From positions 124,001 through 188,000 of the forward strand of contig CACYGL010000001.1 of assembly GCA_902773995.1 (NCBI GenBank): a DNA stretch of 64,000 nt. The letters are read 5' to 3'. This document shows positions 56,726-63,132 of the stretch, piece by piece; the first letter of the stretch is position 1; the number at the start of each line of letters is the position of its first letter. Below the pieces are notes generated by a model. That model searched no databases. It saw only the letters and a program-made list of their open reading frames with translations, and was not told the origin of the DNA. The stretch comes from an uncultured Coriobacteriaceae bacterium (GTDB lineage: Bacteria > Actinomycetota > Coriobacteriia > Coriobacteriales > Atopobiaceae). The position numbers and the translations under genes are program-made.

Positions 56726-59431
56726 CTAGGCGACCTTGGCAGGACCGCCGTTGGAGTTGATCTTGGCCTGCGCTGCCGCAAGGCGAGCGATGGGCACGCG
56801 GTACGGCGAGCAGGACACGTAGTCGAGGCCGAGGTCATAGTAGACCTGGATGGACTCGGGGTCGCCACCAGTCTCGCCGCAGACGCCGCAGACGATGTCC
56901 GGGTTGGCCTTGTGGCCACCCTCGACGCCCATCTGGACGAGCTTGGCGACGCCGGGGTCGACGGTCGCGAAGGGGTTCCGCTTGACGATCTTCTTGTCGA
57001 GGTAGAGCGGCATGAACGCGGACTCGACGTCGTCGCGGGAGAACCCGAGGCAGGTCTGGGTGAGGTCGTTGGTGCCAAAGGAGAAGAAGTCGGCGTGCTT
57101 GCCGATCTCGTCGGCGGTGATGGCAGCGCGGGGAAGCTCAATCATGGTGCCGATGGGAATCTCGAGCTTGACGCCCGTCTCCTCCTCGACCTCCTTCAGG
57201 GTCTTCTCGACGCCGGCGCGGACGAGCTCAATCTCGGACTCGAAGGCAACGAGCGGGATCATGATCTCGGGCTTGGGGTCGAAGCCCTCCTTCTTGAGCT
57301 CGGCAGCGGCGCCCGCGATGGCGCGGACCTGCATGACGTTGAGCTCGGGGTAGACGATGCCCAGGCGGCAGCCGCGAAGGCCGAGCATGGGGTTGGCCTC
57401 CTGGAAGGAGTCGAGCTTGGCGAGCAGGGCGCGCTTCTCAGTGCAGTCCTTGCCGGCGCACTCCTCCTTGGTGATCTCGACCTCAAGGTCGCGCGGGTTG
57501 TCGAGGAACTCGTGCAAAGGGGGATCGAGCAGGCGCACGATGACGGTCTTGCCGTCCATGGCCTTGAACATGCCAAGGAAGTCACCCTTCTGGGCCTCGC
57601 CCAGCTTCTTGAGGGACTCCTGCTTCACATCGTCGGACTCGGCGAGGATGAAGTTCTGGATGAGCTGCTTGCGCTCGCCAAGGAACATGTGCTCGGTGCG
57701 GTCCAGGCCAATGCCCTCGGCGCCGTTGTCAGCGGAGAGCTGCGCGTCGGCGGGGTTGTCGGCGTTGGCGCGGACGCCAATCACGCGGCCACGGGCGGGA
57801 TCCTTGCGGACCTCGTCTGCCCAGTCGAGGATGGTCTCGAGGTCGCCGCCGAGCTGCGGACGAACCAGGGGCACCTCGCCCAGGATGACGTCACCCGTGG
57901 TGCCGTCGATGGAGATGATGTCGCCCTCGTGAAGGACAACGTCGGTGCCAGCAACCTTGCACTCCTTGTTAGGAGCGTCGATGTGGAGAGCCTCTACGCC
58001 GCAGACGCAGGGGGCGCCCATGCCACGGGCGATGACGGCCGCGTGGGACGTCTTGCCGCCGTGAGAGGTGAGGATGCCCTCGGCAGCAACCATGCCCTTG
58101 AGGTCGTCGGGCGTGGTCTCCCAGCGCACGAGGATGGAGGGCTTGCCAGCCTCCTTGAAGGCCTCGGCGTCAGCGGACGAGAACACCACGGCACCGGTAG
58201 CAGCGCCGGGGGAGGCGTTCAGGCCCTTGGCGAGGACCTCGTACTTGGCCTTGGGGTCAAACTGCGGGTGCAGGAGCTGGTCGAGCTGCTCGGGGGCAAC
58301 GCGCATGACCGCGGTCTCCCTGGAGATGCGACCCTCCTCGTACATCTGGATGGCAACCTTGAGCGCGGAGAGGGCGGTACGCTTGCCCACGCGGGTCTGG
58401 AGCATCCAGAGCTTGCCCTCCTGGATGGTGAACTCGAGGTCCATCATGTCAGCGTAGTGGTCCTCGAGGATCTCGAAGACGTGGTAGAGCTCCTTGCCAG
58501 CCTCCTCGAGACCCGGGGTCTTGGGCAGGTCGGAGATGGGCTCGGTGTTGCGGATGCCGGCCACGACGTCCTCGCCCTGGGCGTTGACCAGGAAGTCGCC
58601 GTAGCGCTCGTTGGTGCCGTCGGCGGGGTTGCGCGTGAACGCGACGCCGGTTGCCGAGGTGTCACCCATGTTACCGAAGACCATGCACTGGACGTTGACG
58701 GCAGTGCCCAGGTCATCGGGGATCTTGTTCTGCTTGCGGTACAGGATGGCGCGCGGTGTGTTCCAGGATCCGAAGACCGCCTGCTCGGCAAGACGCAGCT
58801 GGAGGTACGGGTCGTGCGGGAACACGGGCTTGCCGTCGACGACAACCTCGGGGTACTTCTCGGGGTCGACGTTGTCGGAGAAGATCTGCTTGAAGGTGGC
58901 GACGAGGTCCTTGAGGTCGTCAGCGTTGAGCTCGGTGTCAAGCTTCACGCCGCGCTCGGCCTTCTTGGCGTTGATGGCATCCTCGAAGAGCTGGCCATCG
59001 ACGCCCATGACGACGTCCGAGAACATCTGGACGAAGCGGCGGTAGGAGTCGTAGCCAAAGCGGGGATTGCCGGTCTTCTTGATGAGGCCCTGAACGGAGT
59101 CATCGTTGAGGCCGAGGTTAAGGACGGTGTCCATCATGCCAGGCATGGAGAAGGGGGCGCCGGAGCGGACGGAGACGAGTAGCGGGTCGTCCTTGTCGCC
59201 GAGCTTCTTGCCCATGCGCTTCTCGAGGTCCTTACGGTAGACGTCGATCTCGTCAAGAACGCCGTCGGGCCAGACGTTACCAGCGGACGAGTAAGCGACG
59301 CAGGTCTGGCAGGTGATGGAGAATCCCGGAGGAACGGGAAGGCCGATGTTGGCCATCTCCGCCAGGTTGGCGCCCTTGCCGCCGGTGATCCACTTCGCCT
59401 CGTCGACGGTAGCGCCGGCAACCTCAGACAT
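56726..59431 (-). CDS. ppdK: Pyruvate phosphate dikinase
   Basis: 901 residues. The N-terminal ATP-grasp domain opens with GGKGANLAEM and has SVRSGAPFSMPGMMDT; the phosphohistidine domain carries LTSHGGKTSHAAVIARG with the catalytic His and the Thr targeted by PDRP; the PEP barrel ends with CGETGGDP. It interconverts pyruvate, ATP and Pi with PEP, AMP and PPi. ATG 59431 has GGGGAG five bases upstream. A GTG at 59476 would add VRLFEQGSE, vaguely like the usual first strand, but has no SD. It follows a strong terminator, so it has its own promoter. Confidence 0.95.
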   Translation of the reverse strand: MSEVAGATVDEAKWITGGKGANLAEMANIGLPVPPGFSITCQTCVAYSSAGNVWPDGVLDEIDVYRKDLEKRMGKKLGDKDDPLLVSVRSGAPFSMPGMMDTVLNLGLNDDSVQGLIKKTGNPRFGYDSYRRFVQMFSDVVMGVDGQLFEDAINAKKAERGVKLDTELNADDLKDLVATFKQIFSDNVDPEKYPEVVVDGKPVFPHDPYLQLRLAEQAVFGSWNTPRAILYRKQNKIPDDLGTAVNVQCMVFGNMGDTSATGVAFTRNPADGTNERYGDFLVNAQGEDVVAGIRNTEPISDLPKTPGLEEAGKELYHVFEILEDHYADMMDLEFTIQEGKLWMLQTRVGKRTALSALKVAIQMYEEGRISRETAVMRVAPEQLDQLLHPQFDPKAKYEVLAKGLNASPGAATGAVVFSSADAEAFKEAGKPSILVRWETTPDDLKGMVAAEGILTSHGGKTSHAAVIARGMGAPCVCGVEALHIDAPNKECKVAGTDVVLHEGDIISIDGTTGDVILGEVPLVRPQLGGDLETILDWADEVRKDPARGRVIGVRANADNPADAQLSADNGAEGIGLDRTEHMFLGERKQLIQNFILAESDDVKQESLKKLGEAQKGDFLGMFKAMDGKTVIVRLLDPPLHEFLDNPRDLEVEITKEECAGKDCTEKRALLAKLDSFQEANPMLGLRGCRLGIVYPELNVMQVRAIAGAAAELKKEGFDPKPEIMIPLVAFESEIELVRAGVEKTLKEVEEETGVKLEIPIGTMIELPRAAITADEIGKHADFFSFGTNDLTQTCLGFSRDDVESAFMPLYLDKKIVKRNPFATVDPGVAKLVQMGVEGGHKANPDIVCGVCGETGGDPESIQVYYDLGLDYVSCSPYRVPIARLAAAQAKINSNGGPAKVA

Positions 59432-59655: not shown

Positions 59656-60060
59656 CTACTCGTTCGAAGCCGGGTGCTCCGAGAAGGTGGCGCCAATGGC
59701 GTGGCTCGGCTCCTCGCCGGTGAGCGTGGAGATGACCGTCACGGCAGGCCCGAGCAGGTCGATGGAGGGGATGCCCCTCCTGTCAAGCTCGCGGCGAATC
59801 TCGCGGCGGAGCTGCCCGTTGGCAAACGTGTGGAAGACGGCACTTGGCCTCTCCGGGTCGAAGTTCTTGTCGAAGTAGTCTCTTACCTGCTCGACGCTCT
59901 CGACGCCAGACACGCGGATGATCTCGACGGAGCCATCGCCAAACTGCGCAGCGGCAGCCTCCACAACGGCCTTTGCGGTCTCGCCGCGCGCGTCAGAAAG
60001 CACGTAGATGGCAGGGACAACGTGGCCGAAGACATCATCGTCCAGATCAAGTTTCCTCAT
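59656..60060 (-). CDS. Half-length DUF299 (PPDK regulatory protein-like)
   Basis: 134 residues, about half of the usual 270. It aligns by eye with the N-terminal half of PDRP/YqfL: AIYVLSDARGETAKAVVEAA at the start and IDLLGP near 100. The catalytic half with the P-loop GVSRTSKTP is missing; the frame ends in a normal TAG and a terminator follows 31 bases later, with no remnant in other frames. PDRP phosphorylates and reactivates PPDK; this protein cannot do so by the known mechanism. GGGAGG lies seven bases before the ATG at 60060. It sits between glyS and ppdK. Confidence 0.85.
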   Translation of the reverse strand: MRKLDLDDDVFGHVVPAIYVLSDARGETAKAVVEAAAAQFGDGSVEIIRVSGVESVEQVRDYFDKNFDPERPSAVFHTFANGQLRREIRRELDRRGIPSIDLLGPAVTVISTLTGEEPSHAIGATFSEHPASNE

Positions 60061-60123
60061 AGTCGATCCTCCCAAGTGACCCAATCGTGCGGGGACGTTG
60101 CAGCAAGTGTAACCGCTCTTACC

Positions 60124-62220
60124 CTACTTTCGCTTCGAAAGTGCGCCAATATCGGCGACGTCACCAAAGACGCCAGCGAAACGGTTGAGAAGGCGCAGTC
60201 TGTTGTCCCTCACGGCCGGATCGGGGTCCATGACAAGAACGTCGGTGAAGAAGCGGTCGATGGGGCCACGGAGACCAGCGAGGGCCTCGCAGGCGGCGTC
60301 GAAGTCACCAGTGGCCAGGGCAGCCGAGACGGCCTTCTCGCCCTCCTCGCACGCGGCAAGAAGGGCCTTCTCCGCATCCCCAAGGACGCTCGCGTCGACC
60401 TCAGTGCCGAGAGACGCGTTGGCAAGGTGGGCGGCGCGGGCATAGGCCGTGGCAAGGTCCTCGAAGAGCTCCGGGCTCTCGGAGCGAGCGCGGTCGAGGG
60501 CAGCGGCGCGGCGGACGAACTCCTCCGGGTCGATGACGCCGACGGCTCCCACTGCCTCGATGGCGTCGGGCGCAATGCCCTCGTCCTTGGCGATGGCAGC
60601 AAGGCGGCCCTGGAAGAAGGCGGCCACGGAAGAGGCAACCGCCTGGGCGTCAAACTCGATGCCCTGCTCGGCGTAGGACGCAAGCGCAAGCTCGATGAGC
60701 GGGCGCAGGTGCACGGCAGGAAGCGTACGCAGCATGGCAATCACGCCAATGGCGGCGCGGCGGACGGCAAAGGGGTCCGAGGAGCCGGTGGGCGGCTCGT
60801 CGATGGCAAAGATGCCGCATACGGTGTCAAGCTTGTCCGCTATGGCAACGCACTTGCCCACGATGCCAGAGGGGAGCTCGTCACCGGCAAAGCGCGGACG
60901 GTAGTGCTCGCGGATGGCGTCGCAGACCTCCTGGGGCTCGCCGGCTGCCTTGGCGTAGTAGCCGCCCATGACGCCCTGCTGGTTGGTGAACTCGACCACT
61001 GCCTGGCTCACGAGGTCTGCCTTGGCGAGGTGTGCCGCGCGCTTGGCAAGACCGCAGGTGCGCTCATTGGCGCCGGCCGCCTTTGCCACGGCCTCGGCGA
61101 GCACCTCCATCCGCGTGACCTTCTGGCGGACGGTGCCAAGCTTCTCCTGAAAGACAACGGTGCCCAGGCGCTCAACGAACTCGTCCATGGGGACCTTCAG
61201 GTCCTCCTCGTAGAAGAACTTGGCGTCATCGAGACGGGCACGCACGACGCGCTCGTTGCCATCGACCACAGTTGCGGAGACCTTGGGGTCTGCGTTGGAG
61301 ACCACAACGAACTCGCGCGTGAGGTTGCCCTCGGCGTCATAGACGGGGAAGTAGCGCTGGTTGGAGAGCATGGACTCGCAGATGATCTCGTGCGGGACCT
61401 TGAGGAACTCCTCGTCGAAGGTGCCAACCAGGACCGTGGGCCACTCGCAGAGGTTCACGACCTCGTCAAGCGTGCGCTTGGGGGTGTCCACTCGGCAACC
61501 GGGACGCTCTGCCTCGGCCTGATGAATGCCCTCAAGGATTGCGGCACGGCGCTCGTCCTCGAGCAGCACGCCGTTCTCGCGCAGCACGTCGGCATAGGCG
61601 GCAGGGCTCTTGACCGCGTGGTCGCCAGCGCCAAGCACGCGGTGCCCGCGCGTGGTGCCAGCGCTCGTGACGTCGGCGTAGCTCACGGGCACAACGTCAG
61701 ACCCGAGAAGGGCGCAAATCCAGCGGATGGGGCGCACGAAGGTCTGGTGCTCGGAGCCCCAGCGCTGGCTCCTGTAGTTGGGCCACTCGATGGAGCCGAT
61801 GACCTGCTCGGAGAGGGCGGAGAGGATCGGCGTTGCGGGGCGCGCGTCAACGTGCTTCTCGGCAAAGACGTACTCTCGGCCGTCAGAGTCCACGCGGCGC
61901 GCAAGCTGGGAGGCATCGACGCCAAACTTGCGGGCAAAGCCCTGGGCCGCCTTGGTGGGGGCGCCGTTGGCGTCAAAGGCAATGCTGGCAGCGGGGCCGC
62001 GCTTGACCTCGTTGAGCTCCTCGGTTGCAAGAGCAACGTCGTGGACGTAGGCGACGAGCCTTCTCGGCGTCTGGTGGGTCTCCACCTTGCCGTGAGCGAG
62101 GCCGGCCTCGTCCAGCCCCTTGCGAACAAGCTCGCCAAGCTGCACCACAGCGTGGTTGAGAGGTGCGGAGGGCATCTCTTCGCAGCCAATCTCGAGCAGG
62201 AAGTCCTTGGTCTCGGCCAT
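60124..62220 (-). CDS. glyS: Glycyl-tRNA synthetase beta subunit
   Basis: 698 residues. N-terminal LLEIGCEEMPSAPL and RGPAASIAFD are family marks; an HD-like central region and a C-terminal anticodon-binding-like DALR domain follow. It forms the alpha2-beta2 enzyme with GlyQ. The ATG directly abuts the glyQ stop (TAG ATG), so translation is coupled. Confidence 0.96.
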   Translation of the reverse strand: MAETKDFLLEIGCEEMPSAPLNHAVVQLGELVRKGLDEAGLAHGKVETHQTPRRLVAYVHDVALATEELNEVKRGPAASIAFDANGAPTKAAQGFARKFGVDASQLARRVDSDGREYVFAEKHVDARPATPILSALSEQVIGSIEWPNYRSQRWGSEHQTFVRPIRWICALLGSDVVPVSYADVTSAGTTRGHRVLGAGDHAVKSPAAYADVLRENGVLLEDERRAAILEGIHQAEAERPGCRVDTPKRTLDEVVNLCEWPTVLVGTFDEEFLKVPHEIICESMLSNQRYFPVYDAEGNLTREFVVVSNADPKVSATVVDGNERVVRARLDDAKFFYEEDLKVPMDEFVERLGTVVFQEKLGTVRQKVTRMEVLAEAVAKAAGANERTCGLAKRAAHLAKADLVSQAVVEFTNQQGVMGGYYAKAAGEPQEVCDAIREHYRPRFAGDELPSGIVGKCVAIADKLDTVCGIFAIDEPPTGSSDPFAVRRAAIGVIAMLRTLPAVHLRPLIELALASYAEQGIEFDAQAVASSVAAFFQGRLAAIAKDEGIAPDAIEAVGAVGVIDPEEFVRRAAALDRARSESPELFEDLATAYARAAHLANASLGTEVDASVLGDAEKALLAACEEGEKAVSAALATGDFDAACEALAGLRGPIDRFFTDVLVMDPDPAVRDNRLRLLNRFAGVFGDVADIGALSKRK

Positions 62221-63132
62221 CTAGGCCACCTCCCCCTTCGTGGATGCGTCGTCCTTCTCGCCAGTCACCTCGGCGAGGTAGGCCTCGCAGCAGTCCTTAG
62301 CAACGGTACGGACGCGCAGGATGTAGTTGGCACGCTCGGTAGCGGAGATTGCCCCGCGGGAGTCGAGCAGGTTGAACGCGTGGCTGCACTTCATCACGCA
62401 GTCGTAGGCGGGAAGCGGCAGGTGCGCGTCGAGGCAGGAGTGGCACTCCGCCTCGTACTCGTCGAACTTCTCGCGCATGAGTTCGACGTTGGCAACCTCG
62501 AAGTTGTACGCAGAGAACTCGCGCTCGTTCTCAAGGAAGACGTCGCCATAGGTCATGGGCGTGCCGTCAGGCAGGTAGCTCCACACGATGTCATAGACCG
62601 AGTTCACGCCCTGCGCATACATGGCGATGCGCTCGAGGCCATAGGTGATCTCGACGGGCACGGGGTCGACCTCAATGCCGCCCACCTGCTGGAAGTAGGT
62701 GAACTGCGTGACCTCCATGCCATCCATCCACACCTCCCAGCCAAGTCCCCAGGCGCCAAGCGTGGGGCTCTCCCAGTCGTCCTCGACAAAGCGGACGTCG
62801 TGCTCGGCGGGGTCAAGGCCGATGGCGGCAAGAGAGCCGAGGTAGAGGTCCTGCGAGTCGACGGGCGATGGCTTGAGGAGCACCTGGAACTGGTAGTAGT
62901 GCTGCAGGCGGTTGGGGTTCTCGCCATAGCGGCCGTCCGCCGGGCGACGGCACGGCTGCGGATAGCAGGTGCGCCAGGCGGCGGGGCCAAGCGAGCGCAG
63001 GAGGGTGGCCGTGTGGAACGTGCCCGCGCCCACCTCTGAGTCGTACGGCTGCATCACGGTACAGCCCTTGTCGGCCCAATAGTGCTCAAGGGCGAGGATC
63101 ATGTCTTGGAACGTAAGCGGGCTTTCGCTCAT
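62221..63132 (-). CDS. glyQ: Glycyl-tRNA synthetase alpha subunit
   Basis: 303 residues. The class II catalytic subunit has [33 protein letters not shown] and [24 protein letters not shown]. The ATG at 63132 has GGAGGAAGGA upstream; a longer frame to 63201 runs into lepB. Only 38 bases separate it from lepB, so there is no room for a T-box leader. Confidence 0.97.

What the first reader, a model, noticed from the sequence alone, without database searches (positions are those of the whole stretch)
59656..60060. DUF299 protein without its catalytic half beside ppdK
It stops after the N-terminal domain, so the P-loop region used to phosphorylate and dephosphorylate PPDK is gone. The stop and terminator are clean and no remnant is left, and SD and frame are intact. 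PPDK keeps its regulated Thr-His motif. The protein may now only bind PPDK or a ligand, or PPDK may be unregulated.
Basis: partly seen in the sequence, partly recalled or inferred. Interest (0 to 1): 0.58.

Follow-up and report, generated by a model that had tools for sequence, protein, structure and literature searches.

The report
Free-standing regulatory half of PPDK kinase
In one family of gut and mouth bacteria, a metabolic regulator has lost its enzyme half but kept its ligand-binding half as a small, strongly conserved protein, which suggests it still controls metabolism without phosphorylating anything.

Summary
A 134-aa gene (59656-60060, minus strand) between glyS and ppdK encodes only the N-terminal domain of a DUF299/PDRP protein and is the only DUF299 gene found in this genome. 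It is not a local or decaying deletion. In Atopobiaceae, 116 of 131 genomes with a DUF299 match have only this short form; 15 keep a full-length gene, after glyS in every locus read. Outside the family every apparent short match checked was cut by a contig end. The short gene is under strong purifying selection (dN/dS 0-0.05 within the genus), keeps the S-D-x-x-G-x-T-A loop, and none of 50 short genes has a C-terminal remnant downstream. Some relatives carry further stand-alone copies away from ppdK: one type beside a glycyl-radical-enzyme activase (16 of 16), another beside deoC (5 of 5). My best explanation is a non-catalytic, ligand-binding allosteric regulator made from the PDRP N-domain, which in maize PDRP carries a P-loop and is proposed to be allosteric. 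PPDK is the likeliest target of the ppdK-side copy. Ligand and partner are untested. I found no description of it in the searches made.

The parts
59656..60060 (-). Stand-alone DUF299/PDRP N-terminal domain gene (134 aa; 'type A short')
   Evidence: purifying selection; AF2 model pLDDT 86, pTM 0.79
60068..60073 (-). Shine-Dalgarno GGGAGG, 7 nt before the ATG
   Evidence: read; SD score
59974..59997 (-). S-D-A-R-G-E-T-A loop between strand 1 and helix 1 (residues 22-29), the conserved pseudo-P-loop
59602..59625 (-). Terminator-like hairpin between the short gene and ppdK
56726..59431 (-). ppdK, pyruvate phosphate dikinase (next gene, 224 nt away)
   Evidence: TIGR01828 1207.7 bits
58037..58060 (-). 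PPDK GGKTSHAA: the Thr-x-His motif (regulated Thr and catalytic His by analogy with maize)
60124..62220 (-). glyS, glycyl-tRNA synthetase beta chain, directly upstream (63-nt gap); the short gene is the last gene of this run
62221..63132 (-). glyQ, glycyl-tRNA synthetase alpha chain

Best explanation
The gene encodes a free-standing, non-catalytic regulatory protein made of the PDRP (DUF299) N-terminal domain alone. SHOWN: it is a conserved, selected protein across most of Atopobiaceae, with the whole catalytic C-domain absent and no remnant; the N-domain keeps its predicted fold and its S-D-x-x-G-x-T-A loop. INFERRED: that loop still binds a phosphate-bearing ligand (AMP is the first candidate, because the maize PDRP entry it matches best is titled 'bound with AMP'); the protein then binds a target enzyme and modulates it allosterically instead of by ADP-dependent Thr phosphorylation. 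INFERRED, weaker: the target of the ppdK-side copy is PPDK. The copies beside glycyl-radical-enzyme and deoC genes in relatives suggest that the free domain has been reused as a regulator of other enzymes.
For: Short form in 116 of 131 DUF299-positive family genomes and in all 8 of the genus. dN/dS 0-0.049 in 6 in-genus pairs, against 0.033-0.080 for GlyS. At matched diversity, 37 positions are at least 90% conserved in short forms and 35 in full-length forms, 25 shared. S, D, G and T of the loop and D101 are 100% in 37 ppdK-side short genes. The model's best PDB match is maize PDRP 'bound with AMP' (Foldseek E 1.3e-3; VIA Z 8.5, rmsd 2.3 over 88 residues). A review section I read says both maize domains carry P-loops, catalysis is C-terminal and the N-domain is proposed to be allosteric (PMC9138534). 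No CTD remnant in 50 of 50 short genes. ppdK is next to the short gene in 36 of 37 loci. 8 of 8 sampled Coriobacteriales genomes outside the family that lack DUF299 also lack PPDK, which ties the family to PPDK. Stand-alone paralogues: type B beside a GRE activase in 16 of 16 genomes, type C beside deoC in 5 of 5.
Against: No ligand, partner or activity was tested. A terminator-like hairpin separates the gene from ppdK, so it looks co-transcribed with glyQS. In G017, G024, G025 and G026 ppdK lies away from the short gene (for G017, G024 and G025 the short gene was seen at glyQS). G030 has PPDK and no DUF299 match. The ppdK neighbourhood is inherited from the full-length ancestor, so adjacency alone does not show continued function on PPDK. 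The structural Z of 8.5 is tied with unrelated Rossmann-like folds.
Confidence: 0.45

Rival explanations
1. It is a ligand-binding regulator, but not of PPDK: its place at ppdK is a relic, and its real partner is another protein.
For: The gene stays behind glyQS when ppdK lies elsewhere (G017, G024, G025) and a hairpin separates it from ppdK. Paralogues sit with other enzymes.
Against: ppdK is adjacent in 36 of 37 loci; in the rest of the order DUF299 and PPDK are absent together in the 8 genomes tested.
Confidence: 0.25
2. The short protein is catalytic in its own right: the N-domain pseudo-P-loop has become an active site.
For: An Arg has appeared in the loop (R25 in 91% of 37 short genes, Val or Leu in most full-length ones), and 29% carry Lys at residue 27, giving R-G-K-T.
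Against: Residue 27 varies (E 43%, K 29%, D 18%), so there is no invariant Lys. The review read places the single active site of maize PDRP in the C-domain.
Confidence: 0.12
3. A recent deletion or a decaying gene; PPDK is simply unregulated.
For: 10 genera of the family keep the full gene, after glyS in the loci read; G030 lives with PPDK and no DUF299 match.
Against: Shared by 21-22 genera, dN/dS at most 0.05 in the genus, no remnants, no relaxed conservation.
Confidence: 0.03
4. The catalytic C-domain is supplied by a separate gene.
For: The genome is 90.8% complete, so one gene could be missing.
Against: The PF03618 profile found no separate C-domain in this genome, and none of the places listed is a C-domain alone (the match list was cut at its weak end).
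Confidence: 0.03

Closest known systems
PDRP / DUF299 (PF03618; maize PDRP1, E. coli PpsR/PSRP)
   Same: Homologous N-terminal domain, same S-D-x-x-G-x-T-A loop; same locus as full-length relatives (glyQ-glyS-PDRP-ppdK).
   Different: Lacks the whole C-terminal domain with the P-loop G-x-S-R-x-x-K-T-P that holds the kinase/pyrophosphorylase active site.
Maize PDRP crystal structure 5d0n ('bound with AMP')
   Same: The model superposes on its N-domain (chain residues 136-229).
   Different: Maize PDRP is a two-domain homodimer; this is one domain. Only about 26% identity over the aligned part.
Stand-alone N-domain paralogues in Atopobiaceae (types B and C, this work)
   Same: Single N-domain proteins of about 130-145 aa, keeping the loop.
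   Different: Not at ppdK: type B beside a glycyl-radical-enzyme activase, type C beside deoC. Absent from the window's genome.

Membership tests
PDRP/PSRP bifunctional kinase-pyrophosphorylase (DUF299) | Sequence homology to PF03618 | tested here: met
   67.8 bits against cut-off 23.5, but positions 1-106 of 256 only
PDRP/PSRP bifunctional kinase-pyrophosphorylase (DUF299) | C-terminal catalytic domain with P-loop G-x-S-R-x-x-K-T-P | tested here: not met
   Absent in the gene and downstream
PDRP/PSRP bifunctional kinase-pyrophosphorylase (DUF299) | Score above the NCBIfam subfamily cut-off NF003742 | tested here: not met
   63.1 against 225
PDRP/PSRP bifunctional kinase-pyrophosphorylase (DUF299) | N-terminal loop S-D-x-x-G-x-T | tested here: met
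   SDARGETA
PDRP/PSRP bifunctional kinase-pyrophosphorylase (DUF299) | PPDK or PEP synthase with Thr-x-His target in the genome | tested here: met
   GGKTSHAA in the adjacent PPDK
PDRP/PSRP bifunctional kinase-pyrophosphorylase (DUF299) | ADP-dependent kinase and Pi-dependent pyrophosphorylase activity | not testable with these tools
   Bench assay needed; the domain known to catalyse is missing
PDRP N-domain fold | Relation to the N-domain of maize PDRP | tested here: met
   Sequence: phmmer E 0.0022; hmmsearch E 1.7e-7 to 5d0n (where a TAL-repeat protein scored slightly better and armadillo-repeat proteins also scored, through many weak repeat hits). Structure: best Foldseek hit, VIA Z 8.5, tied with other Rossmann-like folds
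PDRP N-domain fold | AMP bound at the N-domain loop | not testable with these tools
   Only the PDB title 'bound with AMP' was seen; which domain binds it is recalled, the structure paper is not held

The most novel reading that the evidence does not exclude
Atopobiaceae turned the PDRP N-domain into a family of free-standing metabolite-sensing regulators: one copy for PPDK, others for a glycyl-radical-enzyme/fructose-6-phosphate-aldolase pathway and for deoxyribose-phosphate catabolism. A covalent switch was thus replaced by an allosteric one, and the module was then redeployed.
Probability: 0.3. Interest if true: 0.72.

Novelty: new variant of a known kind. Interest (0 to 1): 0.52.

Why it matters
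A review states that a PDRP homologue is present in all bacteria with PPDK (PMC8100219, passages read), and the known mechanism needs the C-domain. Most of a bacterial family keeps PPDK with only the N-domain, so either PPDK there is controlled in another way or the N-domain alone suffices. That makes the open question of what the PDRP N-domain does testable on a 134-aa protein free of the kinase. Annotation by family name would call it a kinase that it cannot be by the known mechanism. The paralogues suggest a small reusable sensor domain.

Tried and rejected
Recent deletion or pseudogene: rejected by distribution, dN/dS and lack of remnants. An apparent extension of homology past the stop in L238 and L240 was read by eye and is not a C-domain. 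One 23-residue hit on the reverse strand of L113 (E 0.24) was taken as chance.

PPDK as sole PEP-to-pyruvate enzyme, which would explain loss of an inactivating kinase: rejected, as pyruvate kinase is in 101 of 101 good family genomes (136 of 140 in all).

Altered regulatory Thr-His in short-form genomes: rejected, the motif is identical in all short, full, outgroup and DUF299-less PPDKs in which it was read. Four other PPDK positions separate short from full (153, 160, 404, 887), which may be lineage markers. That set held G019 and G030 twice.

Short forms outside Atopobiaceae: three weak hits (G231, G234, G249) are all cut by contig ends. G083 inside the family is cut too.

Number of truncation events: unresolved. 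The N-domain tree puts types B/C/X in one clade (97-98) nearer some full-length genes and the g9 short genes apart, but AU tests do not reject one origin (p 0.45-0.63). The GlyQ+GlyS tree rejects short-form genomes as one clade (p 0.00012; without g9 p 0.018), but that tree nests another family inside Atopobiaceae, so gene transfer is likely.

Viral copies of type B: none in viral contigs. Rfam on the window gave three tRNAs only. Papers: searches listed none on a stand-alone N-domain by title or abstract start; I did not read all hits.

Full report
WHAT IS THERE. The region is minus-strand glyQ, glyS, a short gene, ppdK, dgt. The short gene (59656-60060) encodes 134 aa with a good SD. Its Pfam match is PF03618 (DUF299, kinase/pyrophosphorylase) positions 1-106 of 256. 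It ends where full-length relatives run on into the C-domain that carries G-x-S-R-x-x-K-T-P (one search gives one such relative). It is the only PF03618 match in the genome, which is 90.8% complete in 92 contigs. A hairpin with a short T-run lies between it and ppdK, and 63 nt separate it from glyS, so it looks like the last gene of a glyQ-glyS run; that is inference from sequence. The protein is 100% identical in bacterium OL-1 and 98% in Tractidigestivibacter scatoligenes, so the window is a Tractidigestivibacter or close relative, family Atopobiaceae.

HOW WIDESPREAD. In the family 131 of 140 genomes have a PF03618 match. Fifteen are full length (10 genera); 116 match only the N-domain (22 genera, one of which, with G083 alone, is a contig-end cut). 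The match list was cut at its weak end, so a few genomes are classed by E-value only. All 8 genomes of the genus are short. In the order, 297 genomes were searched and 241 matched. By my count of that list 89 matches are in this family and 152 outside; of the 152, all but 3 have E-values (1e-67 or better) that need a full-length match, and those 3 run off contig ends. In a phylum sample, 47 of 396 genomes matched a paralogue profile, and every match outside the family lies in an open frame of 268 aa or more. So, as far as sampled, the stand-alone form is peculiar to Atopobiaceae.

SAME LOCUS. I read 60 loci plus the window: 11 full-length genes, 37 short genes at glyQS, and 13 short paralogues elsewhere. 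Short and full genes occupy the same place after glyS. ppdK follows in 36 of the 37 short loci; it lies elsewhere in G017 and, from further loci, in G024 and G025. In two full-length genomes (G059, G060) ppdK is also elsewhere. No C-domain remnant lies in the 700 nt after any of the 50 short genes, while all 11 full-length genes gave a hit in the same test.

IT IS SELECTED. Nei-Gojobori dN/dS against six relatives in the genus is 0, 0.025, 0.031, 0.045, 0.026, 0.049 (dS 0.21-0.55), as low as GlyS (0.033-0.080); PPDK is lower (0.009-0.038). At matched diversity (12 sequences each, mean identity 0.53) 37 of the N-domain positions are at least 90% conserved in short forms and 35 in full forms, 25 shared. 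There is no sign of relaxation after loss of the C-domain. The 100% positions among 37 short genes include S22, D23, G26, T28, Q39, F40, A74-T78, R85, R89, D101, G104, P105, P118.

STRUCTURE. The AlphaFold2 model (62-row alignment) has mean pLDDT 86 and pTM 0.79: strand 17-21, helix 27-40, strand 46-50, helix 56-66, strand 73-77, helices 82-94 and 106-114. The S-D-x-x-G-x-T-A loop joins strand 1 to helix 1, where Rossmann-like and P-loop folds bind phosphate; H77-T78 ends strand 3 and D101 lies near the next strand end, so the invariant residues probably line one pocket (inferred from topology; I had no coordinates). Foldseek's best PDB hit is 5d0n, 'maize PDRP bound with AMP', E 1.3e-3. VIA-align aligns residues 14-103 to chain residues 136-229, Z 8.5, rmsd 2.3, 26% identity, tied with unrelated Rossmann-like folds, so sequence homology, not the Z, carries the assignment (Pfam; phmmer E 0.0022; hmmsearch E 1.7e-7). 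A review section I read says maize PDRP N- and C-domains share a fold and both have P-loops, that the C-domain holds the one active site, and that the N-domain is proposed to be allosteric (PMC9138534). That the AMP sits in the N-domain is my recollection of the structure paper, which is not held.

OTHER STAND-ALONE COPIES. Some relatives have further N-domain-only genes. Type B (profile A3) occurs in 16 of 395 genomes of the order at E below 1e-60, all Atopobiaceae. In all 16 it lies directly after a glycyl-radical-enzyme activating protein (TIGR02494) on the same strand, with a PFL2-3-like glycyl radical enzyme next to that. A fructose-6-phosphate aldolase was found in 14 of 16; the two misses (L248, L259) are cut by contig ends. 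Type C occurs in 5 of 140 family genomes and in 5 of 5 sits beside deoC, with a DUF218 protein in 4 of 5, a GntR regulator in 4 of 5 and a transaldolase in 2 of 5. One more (L123, G034) lies near deoB (phosphopentomutase). The window's genome has none of these. G019 has both a full-length gene at ppdK and a type C copy.

HOW IT LIKELY WORKS. [quoted passage not shown] The PPDK motif GGKTSHAA is unchanged in short, full, outgroup and DUF299-less genomes, so it gives no hint for or against phosphorylation. Pyruvate kinase is present throughout, so PPDK and pyruvate kinase coexist and a cycle between them would need control. I therefore favour a ligand-binding, non-catalytic regulator, with PPDK as the first candidate target, at 0.45. 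The ppdK link is supported by adjacency and by joint absence of DUF299 and PPDK in 8 of 8 tested order genomes outside the family, and weakened by the apparent glyQS-side transcription, the cases where ppdK lies elsewhere, and G030 (PPDK without DUF299).

HISTORY. How often the C-domain was lost is open: the N-domain data do not reject one origin, the GlyQ+GlyS data reject one clade of short genomes but show signs of gene transfer.

VERDICT. A real, conserved, lineage-wide variant of a known family that fails the defining catalytic feature of that family. Function is inferred.

Noticed in passing
L102, L103 (G059, G060): Full-length but divergent DUF299 at glyQS with the P-loop changed from GVSRTSKTP to GLSGSAKTP, and ppdK elsewhere in the genome; another possibly altered form.
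   Followed up: partly
L091, L106, L108, L117, L119, L121, L242-L249, L259, L260: Stand-alone N-domain paralogue (type B) directly after a glycyl-radical-enzyme activase in 16 of 16 genomes, by a PFL2-3-like enzyme and fructose-6-phosphate aldolase.
   Followed up: yes
L078, L084, L087, L089, L095: Stand-alone N-domain paralogue (type C) next to deoC in 5 of 5 genomes.
   Followed up: yes
L116 (G133), L123 (G034), L240 (G035), L241 (G063): Further stand-alone N-domain copies of neither type B nor C; L123 lies near deoB and an alpha/beta hydrolase.
   Followed up: partly
L220, L232 (G030): Atopobiaceae genome with a full PPDK and no PF03618 match at all.
   Followed up: partly
L071 (G006) and L115 (G133): PPDK reading frame broken in two pieces; may be assembly error.
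   Followed up: no
window 59674-63039 (+): A 1121-aa open frame antisense to the short gene, glyS and most of glyQ; looks like a high-GC artefact.
   Followed up: no
PPDK residues 153, 160 (numbering): N to D and L to A separate short-form from full-form genomes almost completely; may be lineage markers or co-evolution.
   Followed up: no
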